Shown: positions 1 to 7,095 of the stretch, piece after piece
How positions within the stretch are numbered: position 1 is the stretch's first letter
Layout of the letters: each line of letters opens with the position of its first letter
NCBI GenBank assembly: GCA_002718095.1
Contig: PBDP01000007.1
Location: 1-11,931 of the forward strand
Origin: Chloroflexota bacterium
GTDB taxonomy: Bacteria; Chloroflexota; Dehalococcoidia; Lucifugimonadales; UBA826
Length of the DNA: 11,931 bases
Direction of reading: 5' to 3'
Notes under the pieces: generated by a model
Told to the model about the DNA's origin: nothing
Databases searched by the model: none
What the model saw: the letters and a program-made list of their open reading frames with translations, nothing else
Translations under genes and position numbers: made by a program

Positions 1-24
1 TCGTGATGTTCAAAAAGATTACTA

Positions 25-144
25 TTTAGCTACAAAAACGACTTAATGTGGCAGGGGTGGCAGGGATCGAACCCACGACCTTTGGTTTTGGAGACCGAAG
101 GTCTACCAACTAAAATACTAGTCCGAAATGCTGATTTTAGCTAC
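25..144. repeat. Nine-base direct repeat TTTAGCTAC flanking the tRNA fragment
   Basis: TTTAGCTAC occurs at 25-33 and again at 136-144, one copy on each side of the tRNA fragment. Both copies are followed by A-rich sequence. Such repeats could be accessory binding sites for a recombinase, but a nine-base match in AT-rich DNA can be chance. Confidence 0.3.
49..110 (-). tRNA. Partial tRNA-Trp (CCA) 3' fragment, likely not functional; possible attachment site
   Basis: Read on the minus strand, this has the whole 3' part of a tRNA: encoded CCA (49-51), discriminator G (52), seven-base acceptor 3' strand (53-59), a 17-base T arm with a TTCGATC loop (60-76), a five-base variable region (77-81), and an anticodon arm whose loop CTCCAAA (87-93) carries CCA, the tryptophan anticodon. 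The anticodon stem has one C-A mismatch. A D-loop-like GGTAGA is still visible near 103-108. Beyond that the match fails: no AGGGGTG-like acceptor 5' strand exists up to position 140 and the D stem does not pair properly. A 3' tRNA fragment without its 5' half is what integration into a tRNA gene leaves at one end. A decayed tRNA copy is the alternative. Confidence 0.6.
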
Positions 145-170
145 GAAATCTGTGGTTACCTATGAAATCT
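141..170. repeat. Direct repeat CTAYGAAATCT, 19-base period
   Basis: CTACGAAATCT (141-151) and CTATGAAATCT (160-170) differ by one base and are spaced 19 bases start to start. A looser relative, TCCGAAATGCT, lies at 122-132. The function is unknown. The position beside a tRNA fragment fits arm-type recombinase sites. Confidence 0.35.
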
Positions 171-187
171 TAATTCTTTAAAAAAGA

Positions 188-208
188 TTTTGACCCAGTT
201 TTGACCCA
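188..208. repeat. Tandem repeat TTTTGACCCA, 11-base period
   Basis: Two exact copies of TTTTGACCCA lie at 188-197 and 199-208, separated by one base, so they face the same side of the helix. This spacing is typical of paired protein-binding sites. Candidates are integrase arm sites, given the tRNA fragment nearby, or an operator for the gene at 301. Confidence 0.4.
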
Positions 209-289
209 TTATTTCTGAAAACCGATTTTTAAGGACACTTGTTATACATTAACTAAGTAAAAAACCCTCATGTATTTGACGCTTTGAGT

Positions 290-295
290 TATAGT
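290..295 (+). promoter_or_regulatory. Candidate -10 box for a leaderless transcript
   Basis: TATAGT ends five bases before the ATG at 301, so transcription would be expected to begin at or next to the start codon. This would explain the absence of a Shine-Dalgarno sequence just upstream. No good -35 hexamer lies 17 bases further up. An alternative -10-like TATACA preceded by TGT is at 240-248, again without a -35. Confidence 0.25.
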
Positions 296-300
296 GAATT

Positions 301-2523
301 ATGCCAACTAAAAAATGTGAGTTTTGCAAATCAGATATTTCGGATTTTGATGATTATTGTCCTCTTTGTGGGTCCGCAGTAAGAAACCCCAAAATAGACA
401 ATAGACTTTCCGTTTGTGAAAAATGTAATGCTCCATTGGATGACCCAGATGCTTTGTGTCGAAGTTGTGGACATTCATTCGGTTTTCTTGAAAAAGTATC
501 ATCGGAACTACTCTGCGAAAAATGTAATTTTCAAATAAATTCATCAGACAAGTTTTGCCGAAATTGCGGGTATAAAATCGAGATAAAATCTAAACAACAT
601 GGGAATAGAAAAGAAATAAATTCTGTAACCAAAGATTCGAAAAATAAGCAAAAAGGATATACGGGAAGTATATTCGAAAGGATTACTGTACTACCAATAG
701 TAATTTTGGGAGTTATTGGAATACTTGTACTAATTGCGATATTTGCAAATTATCGAGAAGAGACAGGTGATTTTGATGAAGTAACTGTTTCTAATCCAAG
801 GCCAGCACCAACTCATAGCTCTAGTGTTCGAAACACTCCTGTCCCTGAACCAACCTATACTACTTTGTTAACTTATACGCCAGTACCTGTCCGGCCTGTT
901 GCAACATCAGTACCTGTTGCTCCTATTGCAACATCAGTACCTGTCCCAACCGCTACTACACAATCAATACCTAGTACAAATCCTCTTTATGGTGGTCATT
1001 TACGATATGGTGGAAGCACTGGTTTCCCTCCAAAATGGGATCACACCCAAACAAGTACATGGATCGCACTATTCCACTATGGTGGAAGAATCTGGAACGG
1101 TCTTCTTCAATTCTCACCTAGAGACGGAGTTTCTATCTGGGAGGACATGGCCACAGATTGGTATATTAGTTACGACGGTTTGACCTACACGTTCGCTATA
1201 GATCCAAATCTTAAAGAATGGCATGACGGTACCCCTTTCGATATCGATCAGATCATTTACGGATACAACCGATGGAAGAATCCACCAGAAGGTATTATCC
1301 AGCCAAGAGTTGGTGCATTAGTGCTAATCGACTCTATGGAAAAGCAAGGTAGCAATCTCGCTATTACTTTGAGCGAGCCATTTGGTGACTTCCTTGCTGA
1401 GACTGCTAATGGATGGCACTTAATCCTTCCACAGCACATTCTTGAAGCTAACAACAATACAATTCCTTATCCTGATCTTATGGTTGGTACTGGGCCTATG
1501 AAATATTATGACTCGCAAGAAGGTGTTTCTGTTACAACTGTACGAAATAATAATTACTTCCGAAGCGATCCAAATGGAAATCCTTATCCATACTTAGATG
1601 CAATCTCTACATATACTTTCGCTGACGCTGAAGTTGAAGTTGCTGCTCTAAGAACTCAACAGCTTGATGCTGCTAGGTTAATAGAGAACCAGTTCCCTGG
1701 ACAGCAGGCCATCATGGATGAGAATCCTGGTGAATTCACATTTAGCGTTGAGCCTATGGTTGACGTTGCTAGTATTCAGTTGAATAACACGGCTGCTCCT
1801 TTCAACGACATCAACGCTCGAAGAGCTTTATACTACGGTGTTAATAGGCAAAGAATTATTGACTTCAATGGTAAAGAGAATCCTGTTAATCCAATTAGCT
1901 GGTTCTCCAACCTATTCCCATCTTATGATGAAATCGCAAGCTACCCTGGATATAACCAGGATACTCGTGATGCTGACGTAGCTAAAGCTGGAGAATATGC
2001 AGCAGAAGCTGGGTTAACTGAATTCGACTTGATCTCTGTACCATTTAGAGTGCAGGACGCAGAGCTTGTAGCTCAGGATATGATGGAGTGCTGTAATGTA
2101 AAAGTTAACATCACAACTCAGGACTGGACTACTATGGTTGCTGCTGTTGAAGGACGAAACTATGACGCTGCTACCGGTGGAACAGCACCTAGCTATGCTG
2201 GAATTATCCCAGTTATAGATATTATGCTTGCACCAGGTGGTGGACGAAACGGTGGCTGGGATCCACCTCAGAATTGGCAAGACACTTGGGGCAAAGCTAA
2301 GAAGATGCAGCCAGGTGCAGAGCGTGACGCTCTCTTCGCTGAACTCGAGAGAATCCAGCTTGAAGAATGGGTACCAACACTTCCATATTATGGAGTTGTA
2401 TCCAACAAGTCATGGTGGCACTATGTCAACAACATGAATAACACTGCGCAAGAATTGTTCAGTAACAACAAAATGGAAGATTTGTGGTTGAGCAGTAATG
2501 CACCAGAAGCTGGTGGTAACTAA
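301..2523 (+). CDS. Membrane-anchored solute-binding protein (SBP family 5) with N-terminal triple zinc ribbon
   Basis: The 740-residue protein begins with three CxxC-x10-CxxC zinc ribbons (Cys 6/9/20/23, 39/42/53/56, 72/75/86/89) repeating every 33 residues. A Lys/Arg-rich stretch follows, then one hydrophobic helix at about 128-149, a Pro/Thr/Ser/Val linker (about 162-228), and a family-5 extracytoplasmic solute-binding domain from about 229 to the end. The solute-binding part shows the usual YDGLTYTF and WHDGTPF motifs (291-313). Positive charges before the helix predict ribbons inside and the binding domain outside. Family-5 proteins deliver oligopeptides, nickel, opines or sugars to DppB/DppC-type permeases, which lie downstream. 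There is no signal peptide or lipobox; the helix would be the anchor. No in-frame Met occurs between residues 1 and 283, so a shorter ATG start does not restore a normal protein. The solute is unknown. The zinc-ribbon fusion is atypical for the family. Confidence 0.85.
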   Translation: MPTKKCEFCKSDISDFDDYCPLCGSAVRNPKIDNRLSVCEKCNAPLDDPDALCRSCGHSFGFLEKVSSELLCEKCNFQINSSDKFCRNCGYKIEIKSKQHGNRKEINSVTKDSKNKQKGYTGSIFERITVLPIVILGVIGILVLIAIFANYREETGDFDEVTVSNPRPAPTHSSSVRNTPVPEPTYTTLLTYTPVPVRPVATSVPVAPIATSVPVPTATTQSIPSTNPLYGGHLRYGGSTGFPPKWDHTQTSTWIALFHYGGRIWNGLLQFSPRDGVSIWEDMATDWYISYDGLTYTFAIDPNLKEWHDGTPFDIDQIIYGYNRWKNPPEGIIQPRVGALVLIDSMEKQGSNLAITLSEPFGDFLAETANGWHLILPQHILEANNNTIPYPDLMVGTGPMKYYDSQEGVSVTTVRNNNYFRSDPNGNPYPYLDAISTYTFADAEVEVAALRTQQLDAARLIENQFPGQQAIMDENPGEFTFSVEPMVDVASIQLNNTAAPFNDINARRALYYGVNRQRIIDFNGKENPVNPISWFSNLFPSYDEIASYPGYNQDTRDADVAKAGEYAAEAGLTEFDLISVPFRVQDAELVAQDMMECCNVKVNITTQDWTTMVAAVEGRNYDAATGGTAPSYAGIIPVIDIMLAPGGGRNGGWDPPQNWQDTWGKAKKMQPGAERDALFAELERIQLEEWVPTLPYYGVVSNKSWWHYVNNMNNTAQELFSNNKMEDLWLSSNAPEAGGN
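899..944 (+). repeat. 27-base repeat unit in the Pro/Thr linker coding region
   Basis: The 19-base string TTGCAACATCAGTACCTGT occurs at 899-917 and again at 926-944. It encodes the repeated ATSVPV segment of the linker, and a partial copy (CAGTACCTGT) precedes it near 881-890. It lies between the zinc-ribbon half and the solute-binding half of the gene, so it could be the site where two genes with similar linkers recombined. Confidence 0.7.
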
Positions 2524-2530
2524 CAGCTAA

Positions 2531-2547
2531 CAACAATTTCATTGTTG
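2531..2547 (+). other. Small hairpin after the binding-protein stop codon
   Basis: CAACAAT and ATTGTTG form a perfect seven-base-pair stem with a three-base loop, starting seven bases after the stop codon and just ahead of the terminator. It has no U-tract of its own. It may protect the transcript's 3' end. Confidence 0.4.
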
Positions 2548-2556
2548 AATAAAGAG

Positions 2557-2597
2557 GCGCCTCATCCGGGCAACTGGGTGAGGCGCTGATTTTTTTT
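2557..2597 (+). terminator. Intrinsic terminator of the binding-protein gene
   Basis: GCGCCTCA (2557-2564) pairs with TGAGGCGC (2579-2586). The stem extends inward by a U-G and two C-G pairs to 11 pairs, with an eight-base loop. Eight T residues follow closely (2590-2597). This would end the binding-protein transcript before the permeases, allowing the binding protein to be made at a different level. Confidence 0.9.
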
Positions 2598-2792
2598 GTA
2601 AAAAAACAATCTTAAAATAACTAAAAGTAAACCAATTAAAAAACCGTAATATTTGCCTTTCGTATAACTTATTGAGTTCATTATTCCTGTACGGAATACT
2701 TAAAATTACGCTAAAACTTCTTTGAAATCACTATAATAGTATTATTTGGGAAAAAATCCCTTGTTGATGCCTAGATCGTGCCTAAATCACTG

Positions 2793-2821
2793 TTGATAAA
2801 ATTCAACTTGTCTGTTACATT
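2793..2821 (+). promoter_or_regulatory. Candidate sigma-70-type promoter of the permease operon
   Basis: TTGATA (2793-2798) is followed after 17 bases by TACATT (2816-2821), and a TGT directly before the -10 gives an extended -10. Transcription would start near 2828, leaving a leader of about 50 bases before the ATG at 2878. It is the best-spaced match in the gap. Confidence 0.45.
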
Positions 2822-2877
2822 ACAGCAATCATTAATATTTTGTTAATCCATAGCGTAATTAAGGTTGTGAGAATAAT

Positions 2878-3825
2878 ATGCTTAGATACATAATTAGACG
2901 ATTGTTATTAGTAGCACCAACTGTCTTGCTTGCTGGGACTTTAGTTTTCTTTATGCTACGTGTTTTGCCTGGAGACGTTGTTACTGCGATGACATCTGAG
3001 GGTGGAGCTACACCAGAGACGAAAGCTAAACTTAGAGAAGAATTGGGATTAAATGATCCTATAATTGTTCAATATGGGCGATGGCTTGCAGAGACAGTAC
3101 AAGGTAACTTAGGGTACTCTCACTTTCAAGATAGGTATGTAAGTGAAACTGTTAAAGATAAAATTGAAACTACACTTACTATGGCTGTTTTGTCGATGAT
3201 AATATCCCTAGCTGTTGCTATTCCTGCAGGTGTTATATCAGCAGTTAAAAGAGGTTCTTGGTTAGATCAGATTATTAGAATACTTACAGCAGGAGGATTG
3301 GCGATTCCGCCTTTCTGGTTGGGTATGCTTATCATTTTGACAGCTTCCCAGTACTTTAACTGGGCGCCTCCGGTAATGTATCGAGCTATATACGAGGATC
3401 CGTTGACTAATTTAACCCAGATGATGTTCCCTGTTTTCTCAGCTGGAATCGCATCTGCAGCTGTTATAAGTAGGCTTACGCGTTCTATGATGCTTGAGAC
3501 ACTTTATCAAGACTATATTAGAACTGCCCGTGCTAAAGGCTTACTAGAAGCTAAGGTCGTTATTAAACATGCTATTCAGAATGCCATCATCCCAGTTATA
3601 ACGATGTGTGGATATCACTTTAGCTATATTTTGGGTGGTGTTGTTGTTATTGAGAACGTATTTAATTTACCAGGTCTTGGACGACAATTAATTGTTTCGG
3701 TAAATGCTAGAGATTACGATATGATCATTGGTATTGTTCTGGCACTTACTATTATTTTATCCATATGGATTCTTATAACGGATCTCGTCTACTCATTCGT
3801 AGATCCTAGAATAAGATACGAATAA
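2878..3825 (+). CDS. ABC transporter permease, DppB/OppB type
   Basis: This 315-residue inner-membrane protein is the usual size for the first permease of peptide/nickel/opine-type ABC importers. The N-terminus (RRLLLVAPTVLLAG) is the typical first helix, ending in a VLPGD motif (29-33). Further hydrophobic segments lie at about 100-122, 136-160, 183-200, 236-260 and 282-306. The cytoplasmic EAA loop that contacts the ATPase is clear at 212-240 (YIRTARAKGL, then HAIQNAIIPV). It would pair with the next gene product to form the channel for the solute captured by a family-5 binding protein. The start has only weak ribosome-binding matches (AAGG 13 bases upstream, GTGAG closer). It is 18 bases from the next gene, so the two are co-transcribed. 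Family assignment is secure; the substrate is not determinable. Confidence 0.93.
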   Translation: MLRYIIRRLLLVAPTVLLAGTLVFFMLRVLPGDVVTAMTSEGGATPETKAKLREELGLNDPIIVQYGRWLAETVQGNLGYSHFQDRYVSETVKDKIETTLTMAVLSMIISLAVAIPAGVISAVKRGSWLDQIIRILTAGGLAIPPFWLGMLIILTASQYFNWAPPVMYRAIYEDPLTNLTQMMFPVFSAGIASAAVISRLTRSMMLETLYQDYIRTARAKGLLEAKVVIKHAIQNAIIPVITMCGYHFSYILGGVVVIENVFNLPGLGRQLIVSVNARDYDMIIGIVLALTIILSIWILITDLVYSFVDPRIRYE

Positions 3826-3843: not shown

Positions 3844-4779
3844 ATGGCTACTAATACACAAATAGAAACAGAAGAAAAGAAAATAGATTTGGGTGCTGTT
3901 TGGATCTCTGTTAAGAGATTTTCAAAGACATTTCCCTCAGCAGCTGTTGCTATTGGAGTTTTATGCTTTATAGCATTTTTAGCATTTAGTGCTGAACTGT
4001 GGACACCATTCCCTAGGGATAAAACTATCTCTGGAAGATTATTGCCTCTAATGGATTCGGCTAAAGGCAGTTATACTTGGTTCGGTCTTGCTGTTCCTCA
4101 TTATTTAGGTACAGATGACATCGGCAGAGACTTCTTTACACGTATGTTACACGGAGGACGTGTATCAATATTAGTAGGTTTGATTTCCCCTACAATTGGA
4201 ATAGCATTTGGAGCTATAATGGGAATTATTGGTGCCTACTTTGGTGGAGCAACGGATCTTATTATTCAAAGGTTCACTGATACACTTATGTCAATTCCAA
4301 GTATTGTTGTCTCCATGGCGGTTACAATAGCACTAGGATTTACACTTCCAGTTGTTATACTTGCTATCGCTATAGGTATTTCACCTTATGCTTCGAGACT
4401 TTTACGCTCACACGCCTTAACTTTACGTGGAGCGCAGTATATTGATGCTGCTCAGGCAATTGGGGCAAGCCATTGGCGAATAATATTTAGACATATAGTG
4501 CCAAATTCTTGGGCTCCTTGGATTGTTATGTTGGCTGTAAATGTTGGAAATGCAATTGTATTAGAAGCGTCATTAAGCTATCTAGGAATAGGAATTGCAC
4601 CACCTACACCTTCATGGGGGAACCTATTATCTAGAGCCAATTCTTTCTGGCATGATAACCCTCATTTGGTTATTATTCCAGGGTTGACAATTACTATTGT
4701 AGTGTTATGCGCTAACATATTTGGTGACGCAATTAGAGATAAGTTAGATCCAAGACTTAGAGGTGTTGGAGCTAGTTAA
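3844..4779 (+). CDS. ABC transporter permease, DppC/OppC type
   Basis: This 311-residue membrane protein is the partner of the preceding permease. It has a charged cytoplasmic N-terminus, a first helix at about 31-50, and the OppC-family motif LGTDDIGRDFFTR (88-100) in the outer segment. The EAA loop is at 199-228 (YIDAAQAIGASHWRIIFRHI, then PNSW), and the conserved SYLGIGIAPPTPSWG follows at 245-259. An AGGAAG ribosome-binding site sits five bases before the ATG. The gene is followed by a terminator, and neither ATPase subunit (DppD/DppF type) follows, so the energy-coupling subunits must come from elsewhere in the genome. Confidence 0.93.
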   Translation: MATNTQIETEEKKIDLGAVWISVKRFSKTFPSAAVAIGVLCFIAFLAFSAELWTPFPRDKTISGRLLPLMDSAKGSYTWFGLAVPHYLGTDDIGRDFFTRMLHGGRVSILVGLISPTIGIAFGAIMGIIGAYFGGATDLIIQRFTDTLMSIPSIVVSMAVTIALGFTLPVVILAIAIGISPYASRLLRSHALTLRGAQYIDAAQAIGASHWRIIFRHIVPNSWAPWIVMLAVNVGNAIVLEASLSYLGIGIAPPTPSWGNLLSRANSFWHDNPHLVIIPGLTITIVVLCANIFGDAIRDKLDPRLRGVGAS

Positions 4780-4858: not shown

Positions 4859-5968
4859 TTATTTTGGGAAAGCAATAACTCCTCGACCATCCTTTCCACT
4901 GACTAAGTCATCATATGCCTCATTTATTTGGTCTAACGAATAAGTTCTTTCTATTACAGTATCTATATTTAACTTTCCGGTTTTGTAAAAATCTATAATT
5001 CTTTCGAATGTTACATGAGGAGATACTGATCCATAATATGATCCAACAATTTTCTTGTGATCTTTGACCATGTCAACAGGATTGATCTTTGCCATTTCTC
5101 CCACAGGAGCAAGGCCGATAACTACTCCAGTGCCTCCTTTTTTAAGTGAGGCTATCATTTGAGTGATTATTTGTGTACTGCCAAAAGTGTCGAGGGCAAA
5201 ATCAACTCCAAGCCCATCAGTTATTTCTCTGATTTTTTTAACAGGATCTTCAGACATTGAGTTTACGGTATGAGTTGCTCCAAATTTATAGCTGAACTCT
5301 AATTTAGAGTCATTTATGTCTACAGCAATGATTCTAGTGGCATTCATGATTTGTGCCCCTAAAATAGCATTTAAACCTACTCCACCGGTTCCAAATACAG
5401 CGATTGAAGCACCGGGAAACATATCGGGTTGGTTTATTACTCCTCCAACACCTGTTGTGACAGAACATCCTATTAGAGCTGCTACATCAGTAGGGAAGTC
5501 ATCATCAATTTTAAAGCAAGCGCTTTCAGGGATAACAATTTTTTCCGCAAATACACCTAATTTGGCAAATTGATGTATCTCTTTGCCGGCTTCATCTTTT
5601 AAGCGAAATGTTCCGTCGTATTGACGTGTTCCTGTTAGGCGATTTGTGTCGCATATATTCCCTAATCCTGATCTGCATGCATTACAAAATCCACAACTTG
5701 GAACAAAAGACAGAATGCATTTGTCACCTTGTTTGACAGAGGTTACATTTTCCCCGACTTTATCTACTATTCCAGATCCTTCATGTCCTAGAACTATAGG
5801 GAACTCGAAAGCCGTATCTCCCGTCATTACATGATGGTCAGAAGCACATACTCCCGCATGCAACATCTTTATTCTTACTTCACCGCTTTTTGGCTCTTCT
5901 TGTTCTAATTCTTTTATTACGATAGGAGTATTAGGTTTATACAACACAGATGCTTTTACTTTTGCCAT
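4859..5968 (-). CDS. Zinc-dependent alcohol dehydrogenase, class III-like (copy 1)
   Basis: This 369-residue medium-chain dehydrogenase would oxidise an alcohol to an aldehyde with NAD. Likely catalytic zinc ligands are Cys41, His62 (in GHE) and Cys168. Structural zinc is held by Cys92, 95, 98 and 106 (CxxCxxCx7C). The Rossmann motif GTGGVG is at 193-198, and Asp217 at the end of the second strand favours NAD over NADP. Length and layout fit the group of class III formaldehyde/glutathione and NDMA-dependent alcohol dehydrogenases; which one cannot be decided. A strong GGAGGT ribosome-binding site (5973-5978) sits four bases before the ATG. It lies 20 bases after copy 2, of which it is a close paralogue (last 43 residues identical, N-terminal substrate loops different). 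It is the last gene before the shared terminator. Confidence 0.92.
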   Translation of the reverse strand: MAKVKASVLYKPNTPIVIKELEQEEPKSGEVRIKMLHAGVCASDHHVMTGDTAFEFPIVLGHEGSGIVDKVGENVTSVKQGDKCILSFVPSCGFCNACRSGLGNICDTNRLTGTRQYDGTFRLKDEAGKEIHQFAKLGVFAEKIVIPESACFKIDDDFPTDVAALIGCSVTTGVGGVINQPDMFPGASIAVFGTGGVGLNAILGAQIMNATRIIAVDINDSKLEFSYKFGATHTVNSMSEDPVKKIREITDGLGVDFALDTFGSTQIITQMIASLKKGGTGVVIGLAPVGEMAKINPVDMVKDHKKIVGSYYGSVSPHVTFERIIDFYKTGKLNIDTVIERTYSLDQINEAYDDLVSGKDGRGVIAFPK

Positions 5969-5988
5969 ACTGACCTCCGTGTATTTAA

Positions 5989-7095
5989 TTATTTAGGGAA
6001 AGCAATAACTCCGCGGCCGTCTTTTCCACTTACTAAATCATCATATGCTTCATTTATTTGATCTAATGAATAAGTTCTTTCGATTACAGTGTCTATATTT
6101 AATTTTCCTGTTTTGTAAAAATTAATTATTCGTTCAAATGTTATATGAGGAGTAACAGAACCATAAAATGAACCAAGTACTTTTTTGGAATTTCTAACCA
6201 TATCGACAGCATCTAGGTCAGCCATATCTCCGTCTGGAGCTAACCCAATAATAACTCCTGTACCACCTTTTTTAAGTGAAGCCATCATTTGAGTGATTAT
6301 TTGTGTACTACCAAAAGTGTCGAGGGCAAAATCAACTCCAAGCCCATCAGTTATTTCCCTGATTTTTTTAACGGGATCTTCTGATTTGGAGTTTATGGTA
6401 TGCGTAGCTCCAAATTTATAACTGAATTCTAATTTAGAGTCATTTATGTCTACAGCAATCACTTTCGAAGCATTCATTATTTGGGCACCTAAAAGAGCAT
6501 TTAATCCTACTCCACCAGTTCCAAATACAGCTATAGTTGCCCCTGGAAACATATCGGGTTGGTTTATTACTCCTCCAACACCTGTTGTGACAGAACATCC
6601 TATTAGAGCCGCTACATCAGTAGGAAAATCATCATCAATCTTAAAGCAAGCGCTTTCGGGAATAACAATTTTTTCCGCAAATACACCTAATTTCATCATT
6701 TGATATACTTCCTCACCATTTTCATCTTTTAGTCGTAAAGTCCCGTCATATTGTCGACTAGTACCTGTTGATCTATGGGTATCACATAGATTACCTAAGC
6801 CAGATCTACAAGCGTTACAAAAACCACAACTAGGAATAAATGAAAGGATACATTTATCACCTTTTTTGACAGAAGTCACATTTGGTCCAACTTCATCAAT
6901 TATTCCGGCTCCTTCATGACCTAACACTACAGGTAATGGTTGATTTTGCTCACCTACCATAAAATGATGATCTGAAGCACATACTCCAGCGTAAAGCATT
7001 TTTACTCTTACCTCACCACTTTTCGGGTCTTCTTGTTCTAAATCCTTTATTACTAAAGGTTTGTTTGGTTCATATAAAACGGCTGCCTTAACCAT
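5989..7095 (-). CDS. Zinc-dependent alcohol dehydrogenase, class III-like (copy 2)
   Basis: This 368-residue paralogue of the neighbouring dehydrogenase has the same zinc and cofactor plan: Cys39, His60 and Cys167 for catalytic zinc; Cys90, 93, 96 and 104 for structural zinc; GTGGVG at 192-197; and Asp216 for NAD. It differs from copy 1 mainly near the active-site entrance (residues about 45-57 and 107-135) and around 285-310, which suggests different alcohol substrates or kinetics, though that is inference. An AAAAGGAGA ribosome-binding site (7100-7108 on the minus strand) precedes the ATG at good spacing. It is 67 bases downstream of the acyl-CoA ligase and may be expressed from both the ligase promoter and a local one. 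Confidence 0.92.
   Translation of the reverse strand: MVKAAVLYEPNKPLVIKDLEQEDPKSGEVRVKMLYAGVCASDHHFMVGEQNQPLPVVLGHEGAGIIDEVGPNVTSVKKGDKCILSFIPSCGFCNACRSGLGNLCDTHRSTGTSRQYDGTLRLKDENGEEVYQMMKLGVFAEKIVIPESACFKIDDDFPTDVAALIGCSVTTGVGGVINQPDMFPGATIAVFGTGGVGLNALLGAQIMNASKVIAVDINDSKLEFSYKFGATHTINSKSEDPVKKIREITDGLGVDFALDTFGSTQIITQMMASLKKGGTGVIIGLAPDGDMADLDAVDMVRNSKKVLGSFYGSVTPHITFERIINFYKTGKLNIDTVIERTYSLDQINEAYDDLVSGKDGRGVIAFPK

What the first reader, a model, noticed from the sequence alone, without database searches (positions are those of the whole stretch)
301..2523. Three cytoplasmic zinc ribbons fused through a membrane helix to an ABC solute-binding domain
Seen directly: three CxxC-x10-CxxC ribbons with an exact 33-residue period, one hydrophobic helix, a Pro/Thr linker and a complete family-5 binding domain in one open frame, with no internal in-frame Met until residue 283. 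Family-5 binding proteins normally have a cleaved signal or lipobox and no cytoplasmic part. Inference: the ribbons could sense metal, bind nucleic acid or a protein, or tether the receptor to cytoplasmic machinery, making it a receptor able to signal inward. If conserved in relatives, this would be a new domain architecture for nutrient uptake.
Basis: partly seen in the sequence, partly recalled or inferred. Interest (0 to 1): 0.75.

Follow-up and report, generated by a model that had tools for sequence, protein, structure and literature searches.

The report
Zinc-ribbon anchored peptide-binding protein fusion
In one uncultured Chloroflexota genome, the signal and lipid anchor of an ordinary peptide-transporter binding protein appear to have been replaced by the membrane-anchoring front half of a different gene (three zinc ribbons, one membrane helix, a flexible linker); the pairing was not seen in any relative examined, so it looks like a lineage-specific gene fusion and not a conserved new type of nutrient receptor.

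Summary
One 740-residue frame (301-2523) carries three CxxC-x10-CxxC ribbons with a 33-residue period, one membrane helix (about 127-148), a disordered Pro/Thr linker and a complete family-5 solute-binding domain, followed by two permease genes. The proposed conserved, inward-signalling receptor is not supported. No relative whose N-terminus I read has a ribbon; nearly all are plainly lipoproteins, including the closest (54-56% identical, same order with the two permeases). The same genome holds an 85-87% identical lipoprotein copy elsewhere. Codon bias changes sharply between the two halves. The gene starts just after a repeat found beside tRNA genes; another copy of part of that repeat precedes a second zinc-ribbon membrane gene. 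Ribbon-helix front ends precede other extracytoplasmic domains in this genome and its class, and in S. aureus TcaA. Best explanation: a lineage-specific fusion in which an uncleaved zinc-ribbon signal-anchor replaced the lipid anchor of a binding protein. Any role of the ribbons beyond anchoring is open. An assembly join cannot be excluded without reads, but no contig end holds the missing halves. New variant of a known kind; moderate-low interest.

The parts
301..2523 (+). Fusion gene: three zinc ribbons, membrane helix, linker, family-5 solute-binding domain (740 aa)
   Evidence: ORF, Pfam, structure model
316..369 (+). Zinc ribbon 1 (residues 6-23)
   Evidence: CxxC-x10-CxxC; Pfam DZR
415..468 (+). 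Zinc ribbon 2 (residues 39-56)
   Evidence: CxxC-x10-CxxC; Pfam DZR
514..567 (+). Zinc ribbon 3 (residues 72-89)
   Evidence: CxxC-x10-CxxC; Pfam Zn_Ribbon_1
679..744 (+). Membrane helix, likely uncleaved signal-anchor (residues 127-148)
   Evidence: Hydropathy, AlphaFold2 helix
745..981 (+). Pro/Thr-rich disordered linker (residues 149-227); the join of the two source genes most likely lies in its last part
   Evidence: pLDDT about 30; codon bias and homology boundary; linker comparison weak
982..2520 (+). Family-5 solute-binding domain (residues 228-740)
   Evidence: SBP_bac_5 2.4e-45; Foldseek matches to OppA/DppA/NikA
2556..2587 (+). Terminator-like hairpin after the fusion gene, before dppB
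   Evidence: 14-pair stem followed by T run
2878..3825 (+). dppB-type permease gene
   Evidence: BPD_transp_1 4.8e-37; 56-65% identical to permeases of the nearest relatives
3844..4779 (+). dppC-type permease gene
   Evidence: BPD_transp_1 2.2e-30; 60-67% identical to permeases of the nearest relatives
48..123 (-). Damaged tRNA-Trp-like piece (3' part kept, 5' side altered)
   Evidence: Aligned with the intact tRNA-Trp at C10:1532-1607; not called a tRNA by ARAGORN; Rfam tRNA below gathering score
124..280 (.). Repeat that also occurs beside tRNA genes or tRNA remnants elsewhere in the genome
290..295 (+). TATAGT box five bases before the ATG, shared with two other genes that follow copies of the repeat

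Best explanation
It is a lineage-specific gene fusion. The 5' part of a zinc-ribbon, single-helix, Pro/Thr-linker membrane gene was joined, near the end of its linker, to the mature part of a family-5 (peptide/glutathione/nickel-type) solute-binding gene that sits before its own dppB-dppC permease genes. The helix works as an uncleaved signal-anchor (N-terminus in, C-terminus out), so the binding domain is tethered to the outer face of the membrane by a protein anchor and a flexible linker of about 80 residues instead of by a lipid, and still delivers solute to the permease. The ribbons are cytoplasmic and most likely came along with the anchor, with at most a stabilising or docking role. Shown: frame, domains, gene order, second copy, codon-bias break, absence of the join in the relatives examined. 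Inferred: topology in the cell, transport function, order of events, role of the ribbons.
For: Intact frame and domains. The nearest relatives have lipoprotein SBP genes before DppB and DppC, so the lipoprotein form and the gene order are ancestral. The genome's own second copy, 85-87% identical, is a lipoprotein. Codon bias breaks at the join: pyrimidine-ending two-fold codons end in C at 0.20 in the front half and 0.54 in the SBP half, GC3 0.20 against 0.37; the C5 copy's SBP is 0.47 and 0.34. Ribbon-helix front ends precede a peptidase-like domain in this genome, a trypsin-like domain in the same order and FN3-like domains in the class. The gene follows a tRNA-linked repeat, as does another ribbon membrane gene at C5:449770. 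SBP parts of the two copies differ with dN/dS 0.18-0.21 and are equally far from outgroups, so the fused copy is not decaying. Residues 72-147 weakly match the N-terminus of TcaA, 2e-4, for which an intracellular zinc finger, a single membrane span and an external bulk have been predicted (PMC10328498).
Against: Only one genome shows the join, and no reads are available. No close match to a donor of the front half exists in the genome. dN/dS covers the time since the duplication, not since the fusion. The ribbons are modelled only at low to medium confidence.
Confidence: 0.6

Rival explanations
1. Assembly artefact: sequence of a ribbon membrane gene beside a tRNA-linked repeat was wrongly joined to the SBP-dppBC operon; the real SBP before dppBC is a lipoprotein.
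For: Unique to one genome. The contig starts 300 bases before the gene in a repeat with several copies, at which other contigs also end. The assembly has many ambiguous bases elsewhere.
Against: The join (about 900-984) is 600-700 bases past the repeat, in frame, at a domain boundary, with no ambiguous base in the whole window. No contig end holds a stray SBP start or ribbon-gene end.
Confidence: 0.17
2. Inward-signalling or metal-sensing receptor: the ribbons bind a cytoplasmic partner, nucleic acid or metal and report solute binding, or tie the receptor to cytoplasmic machinery.
For: All 12 cysteines are intact in three regular ribbons. Cytoplasmic ribbons on single-helix proteins occur in envelope-stress and cell-wall contexts (B. 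subtilis YdjG in PMC11237479; TcaA in PMC10328498).
Against: Not conserved. No regulatory gene beside it in the window. The linker is predicted to be disordered, a poor path for a conformational signal.
Confidence: 0.12
3. Dead-end or poorly expressed fusion: the lipoprotein copy on contig C5 serves the permease and the fused gene does little.
For: A complete lipoprotein copy exists. The fusion gene has no clear Shine-Dalgarno site, unlike the C5 copy.
Against: No stop or frameshift in 740 codons; the two copies are equally far from outgroups. The SBP half keeps strong codon bias. Two other genes that follow the repeat share the same TATAGT box before the ATG.
Confidence: 0.09

Closest known systems
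Family-5 solute-binding lipoproteins (DppA/OppA/NikA/GsiB type, Pfam PF00496) with DppBC permeases
   Same: Complete SBP_bac_5 domain, same fold, followed by dppB and dppC
   Different: They start with a cleaved signal or lipobox and have no cytoplasmic part; this one has three ribbons, a helix and a linker instead
TcaA of Staphylococcus aureus (NCBIfam NF053815)
   Same: Plan: cytoplasmic zinc ribbon, one membrane span, larger external part (PMC10328498); weak match 2e-4 over residues 72-147
   Different: External part unrelated; score 20 bits against a cut-off of 550; three ribbons here
Chloroflexota ribbon-helix proteins with an external domain (L004 9796-11541, L069, L057)
   Same: Same order of parts; two of the three have a Pro/Thr linker in the same place
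   Different: They carry peptidase-like, trypsin-like or FN3-like domains, and one or two ribbons

Membership tests
Family-5 ABC solute-binding proteins (PF00496) | SBP_bac_5 domain above the gathering score | tested here: met
   155.7 bits against 32.4
Family-5 ABC solute-binding proteins (PF00496) | Type of fold (OppA/DppA-like) | tested here: met
   Foldseek 6e-33 to 3e-28, target TM 0.67-0.82
Family-5 ABC solute-binding proteins (PF00496) | Permease genes of the Dpp/Opp type next to it | tested here: met
   BPD_transp_1 in both following genes
Family-5 ABC solute-binding proteins (PF00496) | Cleaved signal peptide or lipobox (usual, not strictly defining) | tested here: not met
   No lipobox; ribbons and internal helix instead
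A named solute type (DppA, NikA, GsiB, OppA) | Score above the NCBIfam equivalog cut-off | tested here: not met
   Best GsiB 57 bits against 594, NikA 57 against 393
Zinc-ribbon domains (DZR PF12773 / Zn_Ribbon_1 PF13240) | Score above the gathering score, cysteines complete | tested here: met
   36.7 against 27.3 and 32.4 against 25 bits; 12 of 12 cysteines
Zinc-ribbon domains (DZR PF12773 / Zn_Ribbon_1 PF13240) | Binds zinc | not testable with these tools
   Needs metal analysis of the protein
TcaA (NF053815) | Score above the equivalog cut-off over the whole protein | tested here: not met
   20.2 bits against 550
   No ribbon in any SBP N-terminus read; nearest relatives are lipoproteins before dppB/dppC

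The most novel reading that the evidence does not exclude
A membrane-spanning ABC solute receptor whose cytoplasmic zinc ribbons dock a partner or sense metal and so tie solute capture outside to a response inside, assembled at the edge of a tRNA-linked mobile region.
Probability: 0.1. Interest if true: 0.75.

Novelty: new variant of a known kind. Interest (0 to 1): 0.36.

Why it matters
If the fusion is real and used, it shows a solute-binding lipoprotein trading its lipid anchor for a modular zinc-ribbon signal-anchor, and it points to a little-studied front end (ribbon, helix, Pro/Thr linker) that this lineage places before several surface domains. It would not by itself establish a new signalling route.

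Tried and rejected
Conserved architecture: searched 40 relatives, the family (16 genomes), the class (393) and the phylum (400), and the named species genomes with an alignment; related SBPs were found but none with ribbons (N-termini read). Not every SBP hit of those searches was opened, so a distant second case is not excluded. Scans of genome and viral contigs with the single protein found nothing. Twenty stretches with mostly long SBP frames were opened for hidden ribbons: none. Donor of the front half in the same genome: no close match. Separate SBP start inside the ORF: only TTG codons before residue 283, and a product from the last of them (189) would lack the membrane helix. Linker homology: not significant with SBP lipoprotein linkers (p 0.05-0.27), slightly better with ribbon-protein linkers (p 0.012-0.018); low-complexity sequence, so weak. 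In that script the C5 protein linker was read in a wrong frame and is ignored; the DNA comparison (p 0.22) stands. Literature for a ribbon-SBP fusion: none found in the held library.

Full report
What is there. Three ribbons with all 12 cysteines, 33 residues apart, precede one hydrophobic helix, a Pro/Thr-rich linker and a full SBP_bac_5 domain. The residues before the helix are rich in K/R and those after it in D/E, which predicts the ribbons inside and the binding domain outside (inference from the positive-inside rule). AlphaFold2, with an alignment of 14 SBPs, gives a helix at 127-148, a linker without structure and a well-folded SBP; the ribbons are modelled only at low to medium confidence because the alignment holds no other ribbons. 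The SBP matches OppA, DppA, glutathione- and nickel-binding proteins; no NCBIfam equivalog cut-off is reached, so the solute is not settled.

Surroundings. A terminator-like hairpin follows the fusion gene, then dppB- and dppC-type permease genes. Beyond them lie two tandem zinc-type alcohol dehydrogenases, an AMP-binding (acyl-CoA ligase type) enzyme, an amidohydrolase and a GMC oxidoreductase. No regulatory gene is beside the fusion in the window.

Relatives. The genome (G000, 1.44 Mb, 10 contigs) is the only species of its genus held. It has a second copy of the SBP on contig C5, 85-87% identical, with a normal lipoprotein signal, and a third, distant family-5 SBP, also with a lipoprotein-like start, with its own permeases. 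A scan of named genomes gave 18 related loci; the nearest are a SAR202 cluster MAG (MPND01000001.1) and an uncultured Dehalococcoidia MAG (CATQHF010000003.1), 54-56% identical, with lipoprotein SBP genes followed by DppB and DppC genes 56-67% identical to the window's. None of the relatives' N-termini read has a ribbon (some genomes occur in more than one of these sets). So the order SBP-dppB-dppC and the lipoprotein form look ancestral, and the ribbon front end is particular to this genome as far as sampled.

Where the front half comes from. Its codon bias is that of an ordinary gene of this genome, while the SBP half has the stronger bias seen also in the C5 copy. The 300 bases before the gene hold a damaged tRNA-Trp-like piece and a repeat whose copies lie at C5:450990, C10:2, C10:19450 and, in part, C5:449710 and C8:89654, beside tRNA-Lys genes or tRNA remnants. 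At C10:163 and C5:449758 a TATAGT box stands a few bases before an ATG, as it does at 290 in the window; the gene at C5:449770 is another zinc-ribbon membrane protein. Ribbon-helix front ends precede a peptidase-like domain in this genome (Pfam matches just below cut-off), a trypsin-like domain in the same order and FN3-like domains in the same class. The simplest reading is that a ribbon membrane gene at the edge of a tRNA-linked island was joined by deletion or recombination, in its linker, to the mature SBP. This order of events is inference.

Is it real and in use? The join is in frame, at a domain boundary, 600-700 bases past the repeat, in a window without ambiguous bases. No contig end holds the halves that a misjoin should leave behind. 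The SBP parts of the two copies differ with dN/dS 0.18-0.21 and are equally distant from outgroups, so the fused copy is not decaying. Reads are not available, so an artefact keeps a probability of about 0.17.

How it most likely works. As a protein-anchored binding protein: the helix is a signal-anchor, the linker lets the SBP reach the permease, the ribbons stay inside. The plan is that of TcaA, predicted to have an intracellular zinc finger, a single membrane span and an external bulk (PMC10328498). Whether the ribbons do more than come along with the anchor is unknown; I give a docking or sensing role about 0.1.

Verdict. Observation confirmed; interpretation partly supported; new variant of a known kind; moderate-low interest, because the join is not conserved and each of its parts is known.

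Noticed in passing
window 1-300; also G000 C5:450990-451220, C10:2-154, C10:1503-1594, C10:19450-19639, C8:89654-89799, C5:449710-449746: A repeat family at tRNA-Trp and tRNA-Lys genes or their remnants. The remnants at C7:48-123 and C5 have a tRNA-Trp 3' part and a 5' flank shared with the tRNA-Lys copies. Several contigs end in it, and small genes follow its copies (SnoaL-like, small membrane protein, zinc ribbon): perhaps a tRNA-targeting mobile element with cargo.
   Followed up: partly
L112 (G000 C10) 2003-3403, minus: A large serine recombinase (Recombinase and Zn_ribbon_recom domains) about 400 bases from the intact tRNA-Trp gene; a candidate integrase for the repeats.
   Followed up: no
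L004 9796-11541 and 12771-13148 (G000 C5): Two more zinc-ribbon membrane proteins about 2.5 and 5.5 kb after the lipoprotein SBP copy: one with a Pro/Thr linker and a weak M61/DUF5700-like peptidase domain, one short.
   Followed up: partly
window 290-300; L112 163; L004 12759: A TATAGT box 5-6 bases before the ATG, without a Shine-Dalgarno site, at three genes that follow copies of the repeat: possible leaderless transcripts.
   Followed up: partly
window 4859-7095, minus: Two tandem, very similar zinc-type alcohol dehydrogenase genes.
   Followed up: no
L086 1870-7431: Three tandem lipoprotein SBP genes of this subfamily before one dppB-dppC pair in a SAR202 MAG.
   Followed up: no
G000 loci L004, L005, L049, L050, L052; window end 11931: Many single ambiguous bases, often at third codon positions by eye, suggest a population consensus assembly; the window ends just before the first ambiguous base of its contig (11932).
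   Followed up: partly
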